DNA of 64,000 nucleotides from Acidisphaera sp. Lineage in GTDB: Bacteria > Pseudomonadota > Alphaproteobacteria > Acetobacterales > Acetobacteraceae. The translations under genes were made by a program, and so were the position numbers. The notes below the pieces were generated by a model. It saw only the letters and a program-made list of their open reading frames with translations, was not told the origin of the DNA and did no database searches. Position 1 is the stretch's first letter. Every line of letters starts with the position of its first letter. Shown piece after piece: positions 2,160 through 48,216 of this stretch. Location of the stretch: the NCBI GenBank assembly GCA_019240395.1, contig JAFAYM010000267.1, forward strand, positions 1-64,000, in the 5' to 3' direction.

Positions 2160-4109
2160 ATGGCCGGCAAGACGGGATCGGACCTCGGCTGGCAGAAGCA
2201 GGAACGCCTGTCCAGCTTCCTCGAGCGGGTGCCCAGCCTGACCCCCCGAGAACGCGAGCGCATCGTCGAGCAGGCGCTGCTGCTGGTCGAACAGTATTAC
2301 GTCCACCTGCCCTTCAAGCGCGAGGTGCACGACGTCGAGCCGGCCGGCGAGCTTCGCTTCCTGCAACGACGCTTGCCGGCGATCGACGGCGACCGGCTGT
2401 TCCACGGCATGATGTGCGACATCTTCAACCGGCTGCGCGACTTCCATACCGCCTACCACCTGCCCAGCCCCTACGCCGCGAACTTCGCCTTCCTGCCCTT
2501 CCAGATCGGTGCGCTCGGCGAACCCGGAGACCGGCGGTATATCGTGACCCACGTCCTCAAGCCGGTCGGCGACCGGCGGCTGCGTCCCGGGCTGGATGTC
2601 GAGACCTGGAACGGCAGCGCCGTGCATCGCGTGGTGGCGCGCGACGCGCAGGCCAACGCCGGCGCCAATCCGGACGCGCAATACGCCCGCGCCCTCGACG
2701 CCATGACGATCCGGCCCATGGTGCGCATGCTGCCCCCGGCCGAGCCGGTGGTGCACGTGGGATTCCGTGACGCCGGCGGCCACCGCTTCACCCTGGCTTT
2801 CCCCTGGCGGATCGGCCGACCCGCACCGGAACCGAGCCATCAGCGCGTGCATGACCATTCCGCGCGCCACCATTTGGCACTCGACAGCGACAGCGACCTG
2901 CTGCGCCAGGCGCGCAAGACGCTGTACGCCCCGCACGTCGTGGCCGCCGAGCGGCGCACGACGAAACCGGCACCGCCCGGCCACAGACCGCGCCGTCGCG
3001 ACGACTCCCCGGAGCAGGTCGCCAGCCGGATGCCCGGGCTGTTCACTGCGGCAATCGTGCGGCATGGCGGCCAGGAGTACGGCTACATCCGCATCCGCAG
3101 CTTCAAGGTCCGGAGCGCGGATCACTTCCTCCAGGAGTTCCTGCACCTGACCCGCGGGTTGCCGGCGAGCGGGCTGATCCTCGACGTGCGCGGCAATTCC
3201 GGCGGCCTCGTCGCAGCGGCGGAACGGCTGCTGCAGTTGCTGACGCCGCGCCCGATCGAGCCGCAAGGCTTCCAGTTCCTCGCCACCGACGCGGTGCTGC
3301 AGATCTGCAAGCGACAGGCTCGGCCGAACTCCGATCCCGACCTGTCGGTCTGGGTGCCGCTGGTGAAGCGGGCGATCGCCGAGCGCCGCACCTGGTGCGA
3401 GCCGCACCCCATGACCTCGCCCGAAGACTGCAACAGGATAGGTCAGCGCTATCACGGGCCGGTCGCGCTGATCGTCGATGCACGGTGCTACAGCGCTTGC
3501 GACATCTTCATCGCCGGCTTCGCCGATCACGCGATCGGCCGCATCATCGGCACGTCAGGCGCGACCGGCGCCGGCGGTGCCAATGTCTGGCAGCAGGCGG
3601 ACCTGCGCAGCTTTGCGGACCCAGGCAGCTCGGCCTTCGCGGCCTTGCCGAAAGGCGGCGAGCTGCGCGTCGCGATCCGGCGCAGCCTGCGCGTCGGGCC
3701 GCGGGCGGGGATCGTGCTGGAGGAGCGCGGCGTCACCCCCGACGAAGTCTATCGGCTGACCGAGAACGATCTGCTGGGAGGCGATCGCGATCTGCTGGCG
3801 CACGCATGTGAATATCTATCAGGGCAGCCGTACTACGCGTTGGATGCAAGCCTTCGCCGCAGTCGCGGCACGCCGACGACTCTGAAAGTGCAAAGCCGCA
3901 ACCTCGACTCGCTCCTGGTCGAGGTGCAAGGCCGGGTGCTGGACCCGGCCCGGGGCGGCACCGACAAATTCATCATCGAAGAAGCGGCGTCCGGCAGGAT
4001 CGACGTGCTGGGGCTATCCCGCGGTGCGCCGGTCGCAGCAAGGCGCTTGTGGCTCGCGCCGCCGGAACGACACCCGTCAACGCCGCCGGTCAAGTGCCGC
4101 GCAGCCTAG
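2160..4109 (+). CDS. S41-family peptidase-like protein
   Basis: A 649-residue protein starting at an ATG preceded by gagggag. The open frame extends upstream, but that part overlaps the divergent cyclase gene and has no ribosome binding site. The S41 core lies in the second half: GLILDVRGNSGG at about 330 and the nucleophile region with CYSACDIF at about 445, followed by GTSGATGAGGA. The Lys of the CtpA-type Ser/Lys dyad (GKG) is not there, so it fits the tricorn/IRBP-like S41 branch, or is inactive. No signal peptide and no clear PDZ domain are visible, which suggests a cytoplasmic location. The middle (about 220-290) is rich in Arg, His and Pro. Substrate unknown. The stop overlaps the end of the convergent Crp gene by 4 bp. 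Confidence 0.75.
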   Translation: MAGKTGSDLGWQKQERLSSFLERVPSLTPRERERIVEQALLLVEQYYVHLPFKREVHDVEPAGELRFLQRRLPAIDGDRLFHGMMCDIFNRLRDFHTAYHLPSPYAANFAFLPFQIGALGEPGDRRYIVTHVLKPVGDRRLRPGLDVETWNGSAVHRVVARDAQANAGANPDAQYARALDAMTIRPMVRMLPPAEPVVHVGFRDAGGHRFTLAFPWRIGRPAPEPSHQRVHDHSARHHLALDSDSDLLRQARKTLYAPHVVAAERRTTKPAPPGHRPRRRDDSPEQVASRMPGLFTAAIVRHGGQEYGYIRIRSFKVRSADHFLQEFLHLTRGLPASGLILDVRGNSGGLVAAAERLLQLLTPRPIEPQGFQFLATDAVLQICKRQARPNSDPDLSVWVPLVKRAIAERRTWCEPHPMTSPEDCNRIGQRYHGPVALIVDARCYSACDIFIAGFADHAIGRIIGTSGATGAGGANVWQQADLRSFADPGSSAFAALPKGGELRVAIRRSLRVGPRAGIVLEERGVTPDEVYRLTENDLLGGDRDLLAHACEYLSGQPYYALDASLRRSRGTPTTLKVQSRNLDSLLVEVQGRVLDPARGGTDKFIIEEAASGRIDVLGLSRGAPVAARRLWLAPPERHPSTPPVKCRAA

Positions 4110-4801
4110 GGCCGGACGGCGTCCGGCAGCAGTGCGGCAAGAGCAGCTGCATCGCGGAGGATGACGCGGCCGGGCGTCAGCTCGACATGGCCGGCGACTT
4201 CCCACTCCCGCAGCTTCTTGTTCACCGTCTCGCGGGTGGCGCCGACGATCTCGCCGAGCGCGCTCTGCGTCAGATCGACGCGCGGCGTCGGCCGGCCGCT
4301 CGCCAAATGCAGCAGCGTGTCCGCGAGGCGCGCCGAAATGTCGTGGAACAGCAGCGTCTCGAGCTGCCGGCTCGTAGTGCGCAGCCGATCGCAGAGCATG
4401 CCGATGATGCGCAGCGCCAGGCTGGCATCCGCCTCCATCCGGGCCAGCAGGTCGCGCCGCTCCAGCACCAGCAGCCGGCCATTGGTCAGCGCCGTCGCGT
4501 CAGCGGTGCGCGGCCGGCCATCGAGCAGGGCGATTTCGCCGAACACCTCGCCGGGCTTGAGGATGCGCAGCACCTGCTCGCGCCCGGTGGCGCTGGCCAG
4601 TGCGATGCGAACCTCGCCGGCGAGGATCGCCAGCATGCCGGAACCCGGGTCGCCGCGGCGGAACAGCGTCTCGCCGCGGTGCATCGTGCGCTCCTGGGTG
4701 CGGGCCGCCAGCGCCTGCAAATCCAGCTCCGGCAGGCCGCCGAACAGCGGATTGCTGGCCAGGACCTGCATGGCAGCCGATGCCCCGTGTCTCAGCGCCA
4801 A
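4106..4801 (-). CDS. Crp/Fnr-family transcriptional regulator
   Basis: A 231-residue regulator. The N-terminal cyclic-nucleotide-binding fold is clear: a GxLFRRGDPGSGMLAILAG strand region at about 45-62 and KPGEVFGEIALLDGRPRTADA at about 82-102, which matches the phosphate-binding cassette including Glu and Arg. A dimerisation helix follows, then a winged helix-turn-helix at about 178-205 (TQSALGEIVGATRETVNKKL). There are no N-terminal cysteines for an FNR-type iron-sulfur cluster, so it should be a CRP-like sensor of a nucleotide or another ligand. A cyclase gene lies 2 kb away, which makes a cAMP link attractive but unproven. It is divergent from the dehydrogenase at 4906 and overlaps the S41 gene tail to tail by 4 bp. 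Confidence 0.9.
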   Translation of the reverse strand: MALRHGASAAMQVLASNPLFGGLPELDLQALAARTQERTMHRGETLFRRGDPGSGMLAILAGEVRIALASATGREQVLRILKPGEVFGEIALLDGRPRTADATALTNGRLLVLERRDLLARMEADASLALRIIGMLCDRLRTTSRQLETLLFHDISARLADTLLHLASGRPTPRVDLTQSALGEIVGATRETVNKKLREWEVAGHVELTPGRVILRDAAALAALLPDAVRP

Positions 4802-4905
4802 GCAGTCCTCCTCGCGCCGCTACCCATCGTAGGGTCCGCGGCGGCGCTTGCAAACCGCCGGTGACGCGGGCCACGCTCCGCCCTCCAGCAAGGGAGAGTG
4901 CGCGG

Positions 4906-5889
4906 ATGTCGGCGTCGAACAGGAAGAAGCTGCTGCTGCCCGGTACGATGGGACGCGCGGGCTGGGACGTGGTGCGGGCGCGCGCCGATATCGAAGCGGT
5001 CAGCTATGCGGTCGACATGCCGACGCCGGAGTTCCGCGCCATCCTCGCCGACGCCGACGGCATCGCGCTCTCGGTGACGCCGTTCCGCGAGGCGGAGATC
5101 GCCGCCGCGCCGCGCCTGGCCGTCGTCGCGCGCATCGGCGTCGGCTATGACGCTGTCGAGGTGCCGGCGCTGACGCAGCGGCGGATACCGCTGATGGTGG
5201 CCGGCCTCGCCAATGCGGTGAGCGTCGCCGAGCATGCCGTGTTCCTGATGATGGCGCTGGCCAAACGCGGCGCCAGGCTGCACGAGCTGGTGCAGCAGGG
5301 CAAATGGCCGGAGCGCTTCGCCAACCTGCCCGTCGATCTGTTCGAGCGGACGGTGCTGATCGTCGGCTTCGGGCGCATCGGCACCCGCACCGCCGCACGC
5401 TGCCGGGCGATGGAGATGCGCGTGCTGATCTATGACCCGTACGTTCCTGCCGCGGCGATCCGGGCCGCCGGCTGCGAGCCCGCCGCCGACCTCGACGCGG
5501 CCGTCGCGGAGGCGGATTTCATCACCATTCACTGCCCGAAAAACCCGGAGACCACGGGCATGTTCGATGCCGCACGGCTGGCGCGCATGAAGCCGACCGC
5601 CTTTCTCGTCAACACGGCGCGCGGCGGCATCATCGACGAGACGGCGCTGCATGGGGCGCTGACCTCGGGCAGGCTGGCCGGCGCCGGCCTCGACGTATTC
5701 GAGCAGGAGCCGACACCGGTGGACAATCCGCTGTTGCATCTGCCCAACGTGATCACCGCTCCGCATGTCGCCGGCGTGACCCGCGAATCGCTGGAGCGGA
5801 TGGCCGTGGCAACCGCCAGGAATCTCCTGAGCGTCCTGGACGGCACGCCTATCCGCGAGAACGTGATCAATAAGGAGGTCCTTTCATGA
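4906..5889 (+). CDS. D-isomer-specific 2-hydroxyacid dehydrogenase (phosphoglycerate-dehydrogenase-like)
   Basis: A 327-residue NAD-dependent dehydrogenase. ATG at 4906 follows aagggag at a good distance. The catalytic and cofactor domains are those of the SerA/glyoxylate-reductase family: ARIGVGYDAVEV near residue 80, the Rossmann motif VGFGRIGTRTAARC at about 150, NTARGGIIDETAL at about 235 with the conserved Arg, and the His of the Glu/His pair in APHVAGVT at about 288. The C-terminal ACT regulatory domain of full-length SerA is absent, so this is the short form that reduces or oxidises 2-hydroxy acids. Substrate not predictable. The end runs into a 16-bp tandem repeat at 5887-5940. Confidence 0.88.
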   Translation: MSASNRKKLLLPGTMGRAGWDVVRARADIEAVSYAVDMPTPEFRAILADADGIALSVTPFREAEIAAAPRLAVVARIGVGYDAVEVPALTQRRIPLMVAGLANAVSVAEHAVFLMMALAKRGARLHELVQQGKWPERFANLPVDLFERTVLIVGFGRIGTRTAARCRAMEMRVLIYDPYVPAAAIRAAGCEPAADLDAAVAEADFITIHCPKNPETTGMFDAARLARMKPTAFLVNTARGGIIDETALHGALTSGRLAGAGLDVFEQEPTPVDNPLLHLPNVITAPHVAGVTRESLERMAVATARNLLSVLDGTPIRENVINKEVLS

Positions 5890-5940
5890 AAGGCTCTGGT
5901 CGTGAAGGGCTCTGGTCGTGAAGGGTTTGGTCGCGAAGGG
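5887..5940 (+). repeat. 16-bp tandem repeat at the end of the dehydrogenase gene
   Basis: Two 16-bp units (tgaaaggctctggtcg and tgaagggctctggtcg) and a third 15-bp unit (tgaagggtttggtcg) follow head to tail, then a fragment cgaaggg. The first unit contains the TGA stop of the upstream gene. Copies two and three are non-coding. Confidence 0.85.
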
Positions 5941-5975
5941 CCGGGGGTCGGCGGACCGCAGCTTGTCCACCCTCT

Positions 5976-6323
5976 CTATTGCCCCACCACCACACCCTGA
6001 GCGGTGTCGGGGTGAAACTCGCCCATGAAGGGATAGCGTCCGGCCGGCACGCGACGCAGATGCACGACGGCTTCGCTGTTGCCGGGGATCACCTTCTCCA
6101 CGTTCAGCGCGCTGGAACCGAACTCCTCAACGGTCGGATCGAGGTTCCTGACGTGGATCGACGCGGGCTCCCCGGCCTTCAGATGCAGTTCCGGCGGCTC
6201 GAACTGATGGTTGCGGATCTCGAGCTCCTGCATCGGCGCCGGTGTCGGGCCGGTGGCGGCGAGACAGCATCCCGCCACAACCGGCAGAATGATCCGTAAC
6301 CCCGGGACGGTTCCGATCCTCAT
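5976..6323 (-). CDS. Cupredoxin-like lipoprotein
   Basis: A 115-residue exported protein. The chosen start at 6323 follows GAGG with a 6-nt gap and yields a short n-region, a hydrophobic stretch and the lipobox VAGC, so it should be a lipoprotein. An in-frame extension upstream lacks a signal-like structure. The mature part resembles the cupredoxin_1 family: NHQFEPPELHLKAGEP near residues 45-60 and a C-terminal stretch with MGEFHPDTAQG. That C-terminal loop has His but no Cys, so the full blue-copper ligand set is not obvious. Such small cupredoxin-like proteins often accompany iron or copper transport genes, but none is adjacent here. Its start lies within the region also used by the divergent gene at 6376. 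Confidence 0.72.
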   Translation of the reverse strand: MRIGTVPGLRIILPVVAGCCLAATGPTPAPMQELEIRNHQFEPPELHLKAGEPASIHVRNLDPTVEEFGSSALNVEKVIPGNSEAVVHLRRVPAGRYPFMGEFHPDTAQGVVVGQ

Positions 6324-6375
6324 GACATGCCTCGTTATGCGACGCATTCGCATCTTGGGCTGCAAGCCACCCTCA

Positions 6376-6909
6376 GTGTCAAGCCGCCGGCTCGGACCGC
6401 TCGTCCTCCTCCTCGTGTTGGCCGCCGGCCGGTGCCTGGCGGGCGAGCTGCCCTCCGTCACCATCGTCGCGTACGGCCTCTACGGCGCCAGCGCGCCGCT
6501 CGGGCCCCTCCCCGCCTTCTATCGACAGGACACGCTGGAGCGCGTGCAGATGACGGAGCTGCCGCCGCTCCTCGAAGAAACCGAGGGCATCGTGGCCAGG
6601 GCGTGCACGCGCTTCGGCCTGGAGTTCCGGGCGGATGATGCCGGTCCGGCGCCGGAGCCGCTGACCATCCGGGTCGACCACCCTCGCCTTCAGCAACCGG
6701 ACGGCAGCGCTTCCACCTCCGACAGCTTTGCCGTTCCGCTCGGTCCCGGCCTGCACTACGCCGGCTTCGATTTCGACGCGCCATGGGAGCTGGTCCCCGG
6801 CGACTGGATTTTCACCCTGAGCTATCGGGGGCGGACGATTGCGGAAAAGCGCTTTACCGTGACCCTGGCGCCGGACGCCGGCGGCGGATGCAGCAAGCCG
6901 ATCTCGTGA
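6376..6909 (+). CDS. Secreted protein, DUF3859-like
   Basis: Unknown function. GTG at 6376 gives 177 residues and a tidy signal peptide (SSRRLGPLVLLLVLAAGRCLA, cleavage before GELPS). ATG codons at 6322 and 6337 are in frame but would give an awkward long n-region and overlap the divergent cupredoxin gene; no strong ribosome binding site decides between them. The mature protein has an early VAYGLYGA motif, a Cys near the middle (ARACTRFGLEF) and a C-terminal beta-rich part ending in GDWIFTLSYRGRTIAEKRFTV. This arrangement recalls the DUF3859 family, by memory only. Confidence 0.6.
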   Translation: MSSRRLGPLVLLLVLAAGRCLAGELPSVTIVAYGLYGASAPLGPLPAFYRQDTLERVQMTELPPLLEETEGIVARACTRFGLEFRADDAGPAPEPLTIRVDHPRLQQPDGSASTSDSFAVPLGPGLHYAGFDFDAPWELVPGDWIFTLSYRGRTIAEKRFTVTLAPDAGGGCSKPIS

Positions 6910-6967: not shown

Positions 6968-7758
<791 letters not shown>

Positions 7759-7762
<4 letters not shown>

Positions 7763-8103
7763 GCGACGCTGCCGCCGTGCCCCTGCTCGTCACCCTGGGC
7801 GAGGCCGCCGCGGCGCCGCTGCAGCCCGGACGCGCCTCGGCGCTGCTGCTGAGGCATGGCACGCTGGAGCTGCGCTACTACGCCCCGCGCGGCCATGACC
7901 CGCAGCAGCCTCACGACCAGGACGAGCTGTACGTCATCGCCGCGGGCACCGGCGTGTTCGTGCGCGAGGAGGAGCGCGTCCGCTTCGGCCCGGGCGACGC
8001 ATTGTTCGTGCCCGCGGGCGCCGTCCACTGCTTTGAGGGGTTCAGTGACGATTTCGCGGCGTGGGTGGTGTTCTACGGCCCGATTGGCGGCGAGCGGCCC
8101 TGA
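7759..8103 (+). CDS. Small cupin-domain protein
   Basis: A 114-residue single-domain cupin. The GTG start overlaps the TGA of the enoyl-CoA hydratase gene (gtga). Cupin motif 1 is seen as HDQDELYVIAAGTGVF (about 52-67) with His and Glu metal ligands, and motif 2 as GDALFVPAGAVHCFEG (about 77-92) with His. The protein could be a metal-dependent isomerase or oxygenase or only a sugar- or acid-binding cupin. Coupling to a crotonase gene suggests a shared catabolic route; the substrate is unknown. Confidence 0.8.
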
Positions 8104-8191
8104 GCCGCCAGCCCCGCGACAGGGCGCGTCCCGGGGTCAGGTGAAGGGCAGCGATCCGCTCGCTTGCCCGGGTTAATCCAGATTGGGCCGG

Positions 8192-8216
8192 GGAACTCAG
8201 GACCGCATTATAGGTT
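8192..8216 (+). promoter_or_regulatory. Putative EcfG-type general stress promoter of the Mn-catalase gene
   Basis: GGAAC at 8192-8196, a 17-bp spacer, then GTT at 8214-8216 (GGTT from 8213), 26 bp before the ATG. Alphaproteobacterial EcfG-dependent promoters are described as GGAAC with 16-17 bp to CGTT or GTT. The match and the stress function downstream support each other; transcription was not tested. Confidence 0.7.
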
Positions 8217-8242
8217 CTGCCCTCATCCAGGAGGCGATCTGC

Positions 8243-9010
8243 ATGTACCACCACGTCAAGCAGCTCATGTACACCGTCAAGGTGGGCGAGGCCGATCCGC
8301 GCTTCGGCAACATGCTGCTGGAGCAGTTCGGTGGCGCCAACGGCGAACTCGCGGCTGCCATGCAATACACGATACAGGGTATCAATACCCCAGACCCCCA
8401 GCTCAAGGATGTGCTGATGGACATTGGCACGGAGGAGCTCAGCCATTTGGAGGTCATAGGCACGCTGGCGCGCATGCACCTGAAGCCTGCGGCAGCGGCG
8501 CGCAAGGCCGCGGAGGCTGATCCGCTGCTCGCCATAACCGGCGGCGGGGGCGTGAACCTCTACAATTCCCAGGGCAGTGCCTGGACCGCCGACTATCTGA
8601 AGATCACCGGCCAGCCCGAAGTGGATCTGCGCAACAACATCGCCGCCGAAGCCCGCGCCAAGATAACCTACGAGCGATTGCTGGCCTTCACCGACGACCA
8701 GGGCAGCAAGGACGCGCTGCAATTCCTGATGACCCGCGAAATCACCCATATGAAGGCCTTCATGCAAGCGCTGGAGGGTCTGGGCAAAGGTCCCCTGGAG
8801 ATCGGCATGCTGCCGCCGACGCCGGGGCTGGTCGATCAATTCTTCAACGACTCCACGGGCGAGGGCCAGGAGGGCGCAGTCGATATGTCGACCACGTGGG
8901 CCAGGCAGAACGGCTTCGAGGTGGTGGAGAGCCCGGCCTTCCATGCCGACCAGATGGAGGTCGACGGTCCGACCGGGGCCCGCCGGCGCAGATCCTCGGC
9001 GAAGAAGTAG
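8243..9010 (+). CDS. Manganese (non-haem) catalase
   Basis: A 255-residue ferritin-like protein; ATG at 8243 follows aggaggcgatctgc. It should dismutate hydrogen peroxide at a di-manganese centre. The ligand pattern of the family is visible: Glu in LLEQFGGANGELAAA (about 27-41), Glu and His in GTEELSHLE (about 66-74), Glu in EARAKITYERL (about 142-152) and His in TREITHMKAFM (about 170-180). The C-terminus is shorter and less acidic than in Thermus or Lactobacillus enzymes and ends in a basic run (RRRRSSAKK). The gene appears monocistronic, behind the EcfG-type promoter and before a hairpin at 9096-9115. Confidence 0.93.
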   Translation: MYHHVKQLMYTVKVGEADPRFGNMLLEQFGGANGELAAAMQYTIQGINTPDPQLKDVLMDIGTEELSHLEVIGTLARMHLKPAAAARKAAEADPLLAITGGGGVNLYNSQGSAWTADYLKITGQPEVDLRNNIAAEARAKITYERLLAFTDDQGSKDALQFLMTREITHMKAFMQALEGLGKGPLEIGMLPPTPGLVDQFFNDSTGEGQEGAVDMSTTWARQNGFEVVESPAFHADQMEVDGPTGARRRRSSAKK

Positions 9011-9095
9011 CCGATCTCGGGCGTCCGGCCGGGTGTGAACGCCCGACCGGATAGCTGCCTCATACGAGGTCCCACCGAGCGCCACCATTATCGTC

Positions 9096-9115
9096 ACTCC
9101 CGCGAAAGCGGGGGT
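9096..9115. repeat. GAAA-capped hairpin, REP-like or terminator
   Basis: An 8-bp stem (one wobble pair) closed by a GAAA tetraloop: actcccgc gaaa gcgggggt. It lies in the 174-bp gap between the convergent catalase and doeB-like genes. The sequence around it (cgtcactcccgcgaaagcgg) is like a palindromic repeat often found between genes of alphaproteobacteria. It may stop transcription from one or both sides; no T-run follows. Confidence 0.6.
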
Positions 9116-9184
9116 CCACGCGGCACATGGGGATCCCGCTTCGCTGATATGGCGTCCATGAGACCGCGCGCCCAAGGACCGGTG

Positions 9185-10198
9185 TCAGCCCTTTTGCTCG
9201 ACGCCGATCACGGCGAGACAGTCGCCGGGCTTGACCAGGCCCGGGAAGTGCCGGGCCACCAGCATGCCGTCGAGCGCGGAAGCATGCTCGATGGGCGCCG
9301 ATCCGGTTCGGCCGACCGGGTGGATGCGGGCGACGATCTGTCCTGAGGACACGTCTTCCCCGATATCGAGACAGGTCTCGACCAGCCCATCATCCCCGGC
9401 GAAGATGAAGCAGTCGTCCGAAGGCATGTCCAGCCAGCGGCTCGATCCGGCAGCGACAGTGCCCGCCAGAATGCCCGCATGCGTCAGCACATTGCGCACG
9501 CCGCGCCTGGCGATGGCGATCGTCGACGCTCGTGCCGTGCCGCCGCCGCCCAGTTCGGTGGTAACGAAGATCTTGCCCTGGCTCTCGGCCGCGGTGTCGT
9601 ACATGCCGACGGCGTCGATCTCGCGCATGCGCATGGCGAACGGCGCCCCGAATGCCCTGACCGCATCGAAGCAGGCCGTCTCCTGCCGCTTATCGGCAAG
9701 CGCGTGGAAAGCGGCATAGGGGAGGAAGTCGAGCGTCCGTCCGCCGGAATGGAAGTCGAGGACGATAGTGGCCAGCGGCAGGAGGAAACGCTGGAAGTAA
9801 TCGGCGACCTTCTCGGTGATCGTGCCGTCCGGCCGCCCGGGAAAGGCGCGGTTGAGGTTGCCCTTGTCGATCGGCGAGGTGCGGGTGCCCGCGCGAAAGG
9901 CCGGATAGTTCATCGCGGGGACGATGATCACCCGACCGGTCACCTGATCCGCCGACAGCGTCCTCGCCAGCTCGAAAAGCGCGATCGGTCCTTCGTATTC
10001 GTCGCCGTGGTTGCCGCCGGTCAGCAGCGCCGTCGGGCCGGTGCCGCGCTTGACGACGCTGATCGGGATCAGCACCGATCCCCAGGCCGAGTCGTCGCGG
10101 CTGTGCGGCAGCCGCAGGAAGCCGTGCTGCACGCCGTCCCGCTCGAAATCGACGCTCGGCGTCACCGGAGAAGGCGGCGCAGCGGCGCTCATCGCCAT
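9185..10198 (-). CDS. doeB: N2-acetyl-L-2,4-diaminobutyrate deacetylase (ectoine degradation, DoeB/EutE type)
   Basis: A 337-residue zinc deacylase of the succinylglutamate desuccinylase/aspartoacylase family. The zinc-binding motif GGNHGDEYEG lies at about 55-64 and the second ligand region in VLDFHSGGRT at about 145. In ectoine breakdown, DoeB removes the acetyl group left after ring opening by DoeA, giving diaminobutyrate. Start: ATG at 10198 or 10192; the first is 5 bp beyond the doeA stop and neither has a strong ribosome binding site. A longer frame would overlap doeA. It is the last gene of an eight-gene minus-strand operon. The assignment relies on family plus context. Confidence 0.87.
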   Translation of the reverse strand: MAMSAAAPPSPVTPSVDFERDGVQHGFLRLPHSRDDSAWGSVLIPISVVKRGTGPTALLTGGNHGDEYEGPIALFELARTLSADQVTGRVIIVPAMNYPAFRAGTRTSPIDKGNLNRAFPGRPDGTITEKVADYFQRFLLPLATIVLDFHSGGRTLDFLPYAAFHALADKRQETACFDAVRAFGAPFAMRMREIDAVGMYDTAAESQGKIFVTTELGGGGTARASTIAIARRGVRNVLTHAGILAGTVAAGSSRWLDMPSDDCFIFAGDDGLVETCLDIGEDVSSGQIVARIHPVGRTGSAPIEHASALDGMLVARHFPGLVKPGDCLAVIGVEQKG

Positions 10199-48191: not shown

Positions 48192-48216
48192 GGAACTTGA
48201 AGCGCCGTCTCATGTT
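48192..48216 (+). promoter_or_regulatory. Putative EcfG-type stress promoter of the esterase gene
   Basis: GGAAC at 48192-48196, 17 bp, GTT at 48214-48216; 32 bp before the ATG at 48249. Same pattern and spacing as in front of the Mn-catalase gene. The -10 part (TGTT) departs from CGTT in one base. Confidence 0.55.

What the first reader, a model, noticed from the sequence alone, without database searches (positions are those of the whole stretch)
8192..8216. Mn-catalase gene behind an EcfG general-stress promoter
GGAAC, 17 bp, GTT, located 26 bp before the start codon of a peroxide-detoxifying enzyme. The pattern fits the described alphaproteobacterial EcfG consensus and places the catalase in the general stress regulon.
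Basis: partly seen in the sequence, partly recalled or inferred. Interest (0 to 1): 0.5.

Follow-up and report, generated by a model that had tools for sequence, protein, structure and literature searches.

The report
Stress-regulon promoter before manganese catalase
A gene for a peroxide-destroying enzyme sits directly behind a DNA switch that bacteria of its class use to turn on their general stress defences; comparison supports the link well, but it is an ordinary example of something already described.

Summary
The motif alone is at chance frequency in the genome (69 sites against 63 for the reversed pattern), so the match by itself proves nothing. (1) Among the best 80 homologues, the dyad lies in the 100 nt before the start in 58 of 64 loci from records titled as alphaproteobacteria and 1 of 16 others; that one is Bradyrhizobium-like DNA titled Frankia. 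Spacer letters are not conserved. (2) In this genome 11 of 69 sites sit just before a gene start on the right strand, against 0 of 63 decoys. (3) The genome has a PhyR/NepR/ECF-sigma/histidine-kinase cassette. An RpoE4 (EcfG-group)-dependent putative Mn-catalase is already reported in Rhizobium etli. Verdict: a probable (about 0.85) EcfG promoter; a new member of a known kind, of low surprise.

The parts
8192..8196 (+). -35 element GGAAC of the putative EcfG promoter
   Evidence: Sequence; GGAAC is the commonest 5-mer in the upstream 100 nt of dereplicated alphaproteobacterial loci, 43 of 45
8197..8213 (+). 17-base spacer, not conserved in sequence
   Evidence: 33 of the 40 dereplicated loci with the dyad have a 17-base spacer, 7 have 18; mean identity of the 17-base spacers 33%
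8214..8216 (+). -10 element GTT (preceded by G, not the consensus C)
   Evidence: Sequence; in 40 dereplicated loci the base before GTT is C 19, G 12, T 6, A 3
8229..8234 (+). Shine-Dalgarno AGGAGG, 8 nt before the ATG
   Evidence: Read directly; supports ATG 8243 rather than the in-frame TTG at 8183 that the ORF listing gives
8243..9010 (+). Manganese catalase gene, 255 aa
   Evidence: PF05067 193.8 bits; best solved relatives Alr3090 (6j42, 4r42), then 1jku and 1o9i; residues E35, E65, H68, E136, H169 align with chain positions 35, 66, 69, 148, 181 of 1jku (that these are the dimanganese ligands is recalled)
48192..48216 (+). Second GGAAC-N17-GTT in the window, 47 nt before the ATG (48264) of a PHB-depolymerase-type esterase; possible second EcfG promoter, not tested by comparison with relatives
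   Evidence: PF10503 75.8 bits

Best explanation
The 25-base site is the promoter of the Mn-catalase gene, read by RNA polymerase carrying an EcfG-type (ECF15) sigma factor. Under stress a PhyK-like histidine kinase would phosphorylate PhyR; PhyR would bind the anti-sigma factor NepR; the freed EcfG would recognise GGAAC and GTT, start transcription a few bases downstream of 8216, and so raise a non-haem catalase that removes peroxide. Shown here: the site, its placement, its conservation in alphaproteobacterial homologues, and the presence of the PhyR/NepR/ECF/kinase genes. Inferred: which of the two ECF sigma factors reads it, the start site, the induction and its trigger.
For: The best 80 of 462 homologues found (66-80% identity), 100 nt upstream: GGAAC-N16-18-GTT in 58 of 64 loci with alphaproteobacterial record titles and 1 of 16 others; reversed and reverse-complement controls 0 of 64 and 0 of 16. 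The one exception, L088 'Frankia sp. RB7', is 77-89% identical to Bradyrhizobium loci over stretches of 0.8-4.9 kb. Of the six alphaproteobacterial misses, L083 is N-masked and L066, L075, L105 have GGAAC-N17-ATT. Other tiles further upstream in the same 64 loci: 30 of 1718 (Fisher p 3e-80 against 58 of 63). In an open count of 5-mer/3-mer dyads with 16-18 spacing, GGAAC/GTT ranks first, in 40 of 45 dereplicated loci, while spacer identity averages 33%. Position -48 to -72 in those 40; window -51. Own genome: 11 of 69 sites stand 8-80 nt before a gene start, decoy 0 of 63, p 0.0007; genes include EgtB (TIGR03440, 499.5 bits) and a Transgly_assoc protein. S. melonis Fr1 lists a TIGR03440 protein and catalases as EcfG-dependent (PMC6599016, passages; see the Against line for their motif scores). 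GSR cassette: NepR 26.5 bits, cut-off 25.7, PhyR 265.7 bits, cut-off 240, two ECFs whose best solved relative is 5uxx. No sigma-70-like pair at 8000-9200. Precedent: RpoE4-dependent putative Mn-catalase CH00462 in R. etli (PMC3188799, passages).
Against: No exact or one-mismatch GGAAC-N16-18-GTT lies upstream of phyR, nepR or either ECF gene, although such promoters are often autoregulated; a one-mismatch GCAAC-N16-GTT lies inside nepR, about 115 nt before the kinase gene. Raw counts show no genome-wide excess (69 against 63; 30 against 44 for the CGTT form), though the same count shows none in a Bradyrhizobium-like genome either (G384, 165 against 192). The same sites read on the wrong strand reach gene starts in 3 of 69 (p 0.045 against 11 of 69). 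The nearest homologue, L050 (80%), has GGAAC-N17-CTT, and its record is titled Solirubrobacterales. L099 and L122 lack the motif. In the roughly 50%-identity clade of the class search, 3 of 6 lack it near the start. In S. melonis the best motif scores of the TIGR03440 protein (6.61), the one tabled catalase seen (8.83) and the Cox small subunit (8.84) are below the paper's cut-off of 10 for direct targets. The base before GTT is G, not C. Five sigma region-4 (Sigma70_r4_2) matches pass the cut-off, three outside the cassette, so another ECF factor is possible. The window and the cassette are on different contigs (C280, C112) of a 303-contig assembly with 3.78% estimated contamination, so a binning error is not excluded. 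No expression data.
Confidence: 0.85

Rival explanations
1. The site is read by an ECF sigma factor outside the general stress cassette, or by only one of the two cassette factors in a separate circuit.
For: Five region-4 matches over cut-off in this genome, two of them in the cassette. GGAAC-GTT-like boxes are shared by several ECF groups in other phyla (recalled). phyR, nepR and the ECF genes themselves lack the motif.
Against: Conservation tracks alphaproteobacterial hosts, where EcfG is the published reader of this dyad (passages). Motif-bearing homologues in the 385-genome class search lie in genomes with a NepR match in 4 of 4, and the two genomes without one have no exact motif near the start. 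The own-genome site list holds EgtB and a Transgly_assoc protein.
Confidence: 0.1
2. Chance match; the catalase is driven by a housekeeping promoter or by a peroxide- or manganese-responsive regulator.
For: The pattern occurs about as often as expected by chance in the window (2 against 2.54) and genome (69 against 63).
Against: Conserved position in alphaproteobacterial homologues with divergent spacers; absent in 15 of 16 homologues from records titled otherwise; no sigma-70-like pair in 8000-9200. OxyR or MntR boxes were not searched for.
Confidence: 0.05

Closest known systems
EcfG (ECF15) general stress promoters of alphaproteobacteria, GGAAC-N16-CGTT (Rhizobium etli, Sphingopyxis granuli) and GGAAC-N17-20-GTT (Sphingomonas melonis Fr1)
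   Same: Same -35, same spacing, same -10 core (passages of PMC3892343, PMC7083833, PMC6599016); many tabled S. melonis sites also lie within 100 nt of the CDS
   Different: G rather than C before GTT; phyR, nepR and the ECF genes of this genome carry no exact copy
RpoE4-dependent putative Mn-catalase CH00462 of Rhizobium etli (PMC3188799, passages seen, which place RpoE4 in the ECF15/EcfG group)
   Same: A Mn-catalase gene under the class's general stress sigma factor; the six Rhizobium-titled loci in the 80-locus set carry the dyad at -52 to -55
   Different: The two homologues scanned with Pfam (one Bradyrhizobium, one Rhizobium) are Mn_catalase-DUF892 fusions of 421 and 422 aa; the window protein is 255 aa and its scan shows no DUF892. 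CH00462 itself was not fetched
Alr3090-type Mn-catalase (PDB 6j42, 4r42) and 1jku/1o9i-type
   Same: Same sequence family and aligned metal-site residues
   Different: The window protein is below the NCBIfam equivalog cut-off NF052557 (150.4 against 350 bits); regulation of the solved enzymes was not compared

Membership tests
EcfG-type general stress promoter | -35 GGAAC | tested here: met
   8192-8196
EcfG-type general stress promoter | -10 (C)GTT, 16 bases before CGTT or 17 before GTT | tested here: met
   N17 then GTT; read as N16 then GGTT, so the first base of CGTT is G here
EcfG-type general stress promoter | Host encodes EcfG, NepR and PhyR | tested here: met
   NepR 26.5 bits, cut-off 25.7; PhyR 265.7 bits, cut-off 240; two ECFs with 5uxx as best solved relative (that 5uxx is a NepR-bound EcfG homologue is recalled). 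They lie on another contig of the same assembly
EcfG-type general stress promoter | Conserved placement in homologues of alphaproteobacteria, not elsewhere | tested here: met
   58 of 64 against 1 of 16
EcfG-type general stress promoter | Start site and EcfG dependence in vivo | not testable with these tools
   No expression data
PhyR-NepR-EcfG system | EcfG promoter at its own regulator genes (common, not defining) | tested here: not met
   No exact or one-mismatch site upstream of phyR, ECF1, ECF2 or nepR in L034; one GCAAC-N16-GTT inside nepR before the kinase gene
Mn-catalase (PF05067) | Profile score over the curated cut-off | tested here: met
   193.8 against 27 bits
Mn-catalase (PF05067) | Dimanganese ligands Glu, Glu, His, Glu, His | tested here: met
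   E35, E65, H68, E136, H169 align with 35, 66, 69, 148, 181 of 1jku (ligand identity recalled)
NF052557 ManCatBAC equivalog | Score over 350 bits | tested here: not met
   150.4 bits

The most novel reading that the evidence does not exclude
Mn-catalase genes of this clade move between phyla, and each time one settles in an alphaproteobacterium it is captured by the general stress response through a newly gained GGAAC-GTT promoter; the promoter follows the host, not the gene lineage.
Probability: 0.3. Interest if true: 0.4.

Novelty: new member of a known kind. Interest (0 to 1): 0.2.

Why it matters
It places a non-haem catalase in the general stress regulon of an unnamed alphaproteobacterium, and gives a checked example of how to separate a real ECF promoter from a motif that occurs at chance frequency: conserved position in relatives, absence in hosts of other phyla, and placement against decoys in the same genome. 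The wider pattern, a catalase clade whose promoter tracks the host class, would be a small case of regulon capture after gene transfer if confirmed.

Tried and rejected
Raw genome-wide motif counts as a test: rejected as uninformative, because G384, whose catalase carries the motif (L130), also shows no excess. Relatives (same genus, family and class): 12 of 40 genomes, own included, have a Mn-catalase at E 1e-10. Besides the own one, G035 and G037 carry the N17 dyad at -60 and -59; none of the nine others has an N16-18 dyad in the 400 nt before the match (one further locus, L042, is a contig-end fragment without upstream DNA); L037 has an N19 one. A second, distant paralogue in G035 (L049) has none. 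A first class search at E 1e-60 found only the own genome among 289; the limit was too strict, and 1e-35 over 385 genomes gave 7 others. Several independent promoter gains as an established result: the careful tree of 37 proteins needs 6 label changes, at least 3 forced by starred branches, but an AU test does not reject 22 alphaproteobacterial rows as one clade against 12 others (p 0.164; L050, L118 and L122 were put on neither side). The 37 rows (window plus 36 of the 80) were chosen by hand; a 90-row tree finished only by the quick method. Two first-pass placement scripts were replaced by the stricter one; one search had counted the Mn-catalase site as inside an ORF because of the in-frame TTG at 8183. 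Ten proteins picked were scanned; two of them (CheB methylesterase, an HC2-like protein) are not among the 11.

Literature, all in the one held library: no paper holds EcfG, manganese catalase and general stress response together; PhyR with Mn-catalase gives three papers in the listing, of which PMC3188799 is the precedent. In PMC3892343 the passages on catalase concern katG and 'manganese' does not occur. In PMC8092242 the 12 of 24 places shown do not name a Mn-catalase; PMC3420878 names KatG; PMC8226930 names katG and katC under RpoE4 and RpoE2. Searches on katN in Azospirillum, on manganese catalase with general stress, and on manganese catalase with DUF892 gave nothing used.

Full report
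What is there. The window reads GGAAC at 8192-8196, 17 bases, GTT at 8214-8216, a Shine-Dalgarno AGGAGG at 8229-8234 and ATG at 8243. The ORF 8243-9010 encodes 255 aa that match Pfam Mn_catalase at 193.8 bits. The mechanical ORF list starts the frame at TTG 8183, which would swallow the motif; all 80 homologues match from query residue 1, and there 79 have ATG and one (L078) GTG, so ATG 8243 is the likely start. The residues that align with chain positions 35, 66, 69, 148 and 181 of 1jku are E35, E65, H68, E136 and H169; that these bind the manganese pair is recalled. The protein falls below the cut-off of the NCBIfam equivalog NF052557, and its best solved relatives are Alr3090 entries.

Is the motif more than chance? 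Not by number. Two copies of GGAAC-N15-18-GTT lie in the window where shuffles give 2.54 on average, and 69 GGAAC-N17-GTT sites lie in the 4.52-Mb genome against 63 for the reversed pattern. The stricter CGTT form gives 30 against 44. The same kind of count shows no excess in G384, a genome whose catalase is nested among Bradyrhizobium ones (165 against 192), so it is not a useful test either way.

Conservation. I split them by record title into 64 alphaproteobacterial and 16 other loci. In the 100 nt before the start, GGAAC-N16-18-GTT is present in 58 of 64 and 1 of 16; reversed and reverse-complement controls are 0 of 80. The single exception is L088, titled Frankia, whose DNA is 77-89% identical to Bradyrhizobium loci over 0.8-4.9 kb. 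The six alphaproteobacterial misses are L083 (upstream masked), L066, L075 and L105 (GGAAC-N17-ATT), and L099 and L122 (none). Leaving out L083 and keeping L088 as titled, the difference has p 4e-11. Further upstream in the same 64 loci, 30 of 1718 tiles hold the dyad.

The dyad was not picked by hand. After dropping near-copies and L083, 45 alphaproteobacterial upstream regions (window included) were searched for every 5-mer and 3-mer pair spaced 16-18; GGAAC with GTT ranks first, in 40 of 45. Spacers are 17 (33) or 18 (7), positions -48 to -72, and the 17-base spacers agree at only 33% on average, so the two boxes and not the whole stretch are conserved. Most of these loci are Bradyrhizobium, so they are not 45 independent observations.

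A second, more distant set. Among 385 genomes of the class, 7 besides the own one have a homologue at E 1e-35. Four of the 7 carry the dyad at -59 to -61 (L038, L039, L130, L134); three do not (L131, L132, L133), though L131 has GGAAC-N17-ATT at -81 and L133 GGAAA-N17-GTT at -99. A NepR match is found in the genomes of all four carriers (that of G035 with a stop in the frame) and in G343 (L133), and not in G118 (L131) and G327 (L132). The numbers are small but go the expected way.

The regulators. The genome has a cassette on contig C112 (locus L034): PhyR at 7070-7801 (+), and on the other strand ECF1 6311-6811, ECF2 5644-6243, NepR (profile match at 5381-5452; I read the frame from 5554, 79 aa) and a histidine kinase 3561-5318 with HisKA_2 and similarity to PhyK below its cut-off. 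Both ECFs have 5uxx as best solved relative. A second, weaker NepR-like match lies on C179. Neither an exact nor a one-mismatch GGAAC-N16-18-GTT stands upstream of phyR, nepR or the ECF genes; one GCAAC-N16-GTT stands inside nepR, about 115 nt before the kinase gene, and GGAAC and GCAAC are named as the two most frequent -35 boxes in Sphingopyxis granuli (PMC7083833, passage). The lack of sites counts against simple autoregulation here; it does not decide the catalase. The window is on a different contig (C280) of the same 303-contig assembly, so joint membership rests on the binning.

Placement in the own genome. For each of the 69 N17 sites I asked whether a gene start (ATG or GTG with a Shine-Dalgarno, coding-like by codon usage trained on six window genes, frame not coding before it) lies 8-80 nt downstream on the same strand. 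It does for 11 of 69, for 0 of 63 reversed decoys and for 3 of 69 when the same sites are read on the wrong strand; all three of those are sites that also precede a gene on the right strand, that is, divergent starts. Fisher p is 0.0007 against decoys and 0.045 against the wrong strand. The thresholds were set after a looser trial. The 11 are: the Mn-catalase; EgtB (TIGR03440, 499.5 bits); a Transgly_assoc protein, a DUF6496 protein, a 2Fe-2S oxidoreductase subunit and the PHB esterase at window 48264; three with no Pfam match (L005, L017, L032); and two not scanned (L004, L162). In Sphingomonas melonis Fr1 the EcfG-dependent list includes a TIGR03440 protein, a CO-dehydrogenase-type small subunit and catalases, but the motif scores tabled for the TIGR03440 protein, the Cox subunit and catalase #2489 lie below the paper's cut-off for direct targets (PMC6599016, passages).

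What it most likely does. EcfG, released from NepR by phosphorylated PhyR, would start transcription just after 8216 and raise the catalase under general stress. I give this 0.85. No sigma-70-like pair lies at 8000-9200.

Known or new. The published motif is GGAAC-N16-CGTT or GGAAC-N17-20-GTT (passages). A putative Mn-catalase, CH00462, is already named as RpoE4-dependent in Rhizobium etli, and RpoE4 is placed in the ECF15/EcfG group there (PMC3188799, passages). So this is a new member of a known kind.

A side result. The tree label 'motif present' needs 6 changes on a 37-protein tree, at least 3 forced by well-supported branches. The window's clade (window, L050, L051, L078; 99/94) lies apart from the Bradyrhizobium and Rhizobium clades, with homologues of other phyla between, but the separating branches (88/78 and lower) are not starred. 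That would fit repeated capture of a moving gene by the general stress response. An AU test does not reject one clade of 22 alphaproteobacterial rows (p 0.164), and host titles of metagenome bins may be wrong. I keep it as the most novel reading, at 0.3.

Noticed in passing
window 48192-48216, gene from 48264: A second GGAAC-N17-GTT, between divergent gene starts, 47 nt before a PHB-depolymerase-type esterase; possibly another EcfG target.
   Followed up: partly
L089 3001-4263, L086 3001-4266: The Bradyrhizobium and Rhizobium homologues scanned carry a DUF892 domain fused behind the Mn-catalase; the window protein does not.
   Followed up: partly
L088 (record titled Frankia sp. RB7): The contig is Bradyrhizobium-like over kilobases, so the record looks mislabelled or contaminated.
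   Followed up: partly
L050 (record titled Solirubrobacterales bacterium 70-9): Nearest homologue of the window catalase (80%), with GGAAC-N17-CTT at the matching place; either a mis-binned alphaproteobacterial contig or a transfer with a changed -10.
   Followed up: partly
L118 (record titled Bryobacterales bacterium RYN_16): A long (418 aa) homologue from an acidobacterial bin that falls within the Bradyrhizobium-side clade of the tree but has no GGAAC-GTT dyad upstream.
   Followed up: partly
L035 about 2960-3141 (-): A second NepR-like small protein on C179, below the Pfam cut-off; no PhyR-sigma2 or sigma region-4 match of the genome lies on that contig. GGAAC stands upstream but not at the right spacing from CGTT.
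   Followed up: partly
window 9099-9112: CCCGC-GAAA-GCGGG, a 5-bp stem with a GAAA loop, downstream of the catalase gene; one copy in the window with up to one mismatch (0.19 expected); the terminator scan did not list it.
   Followed up: partly
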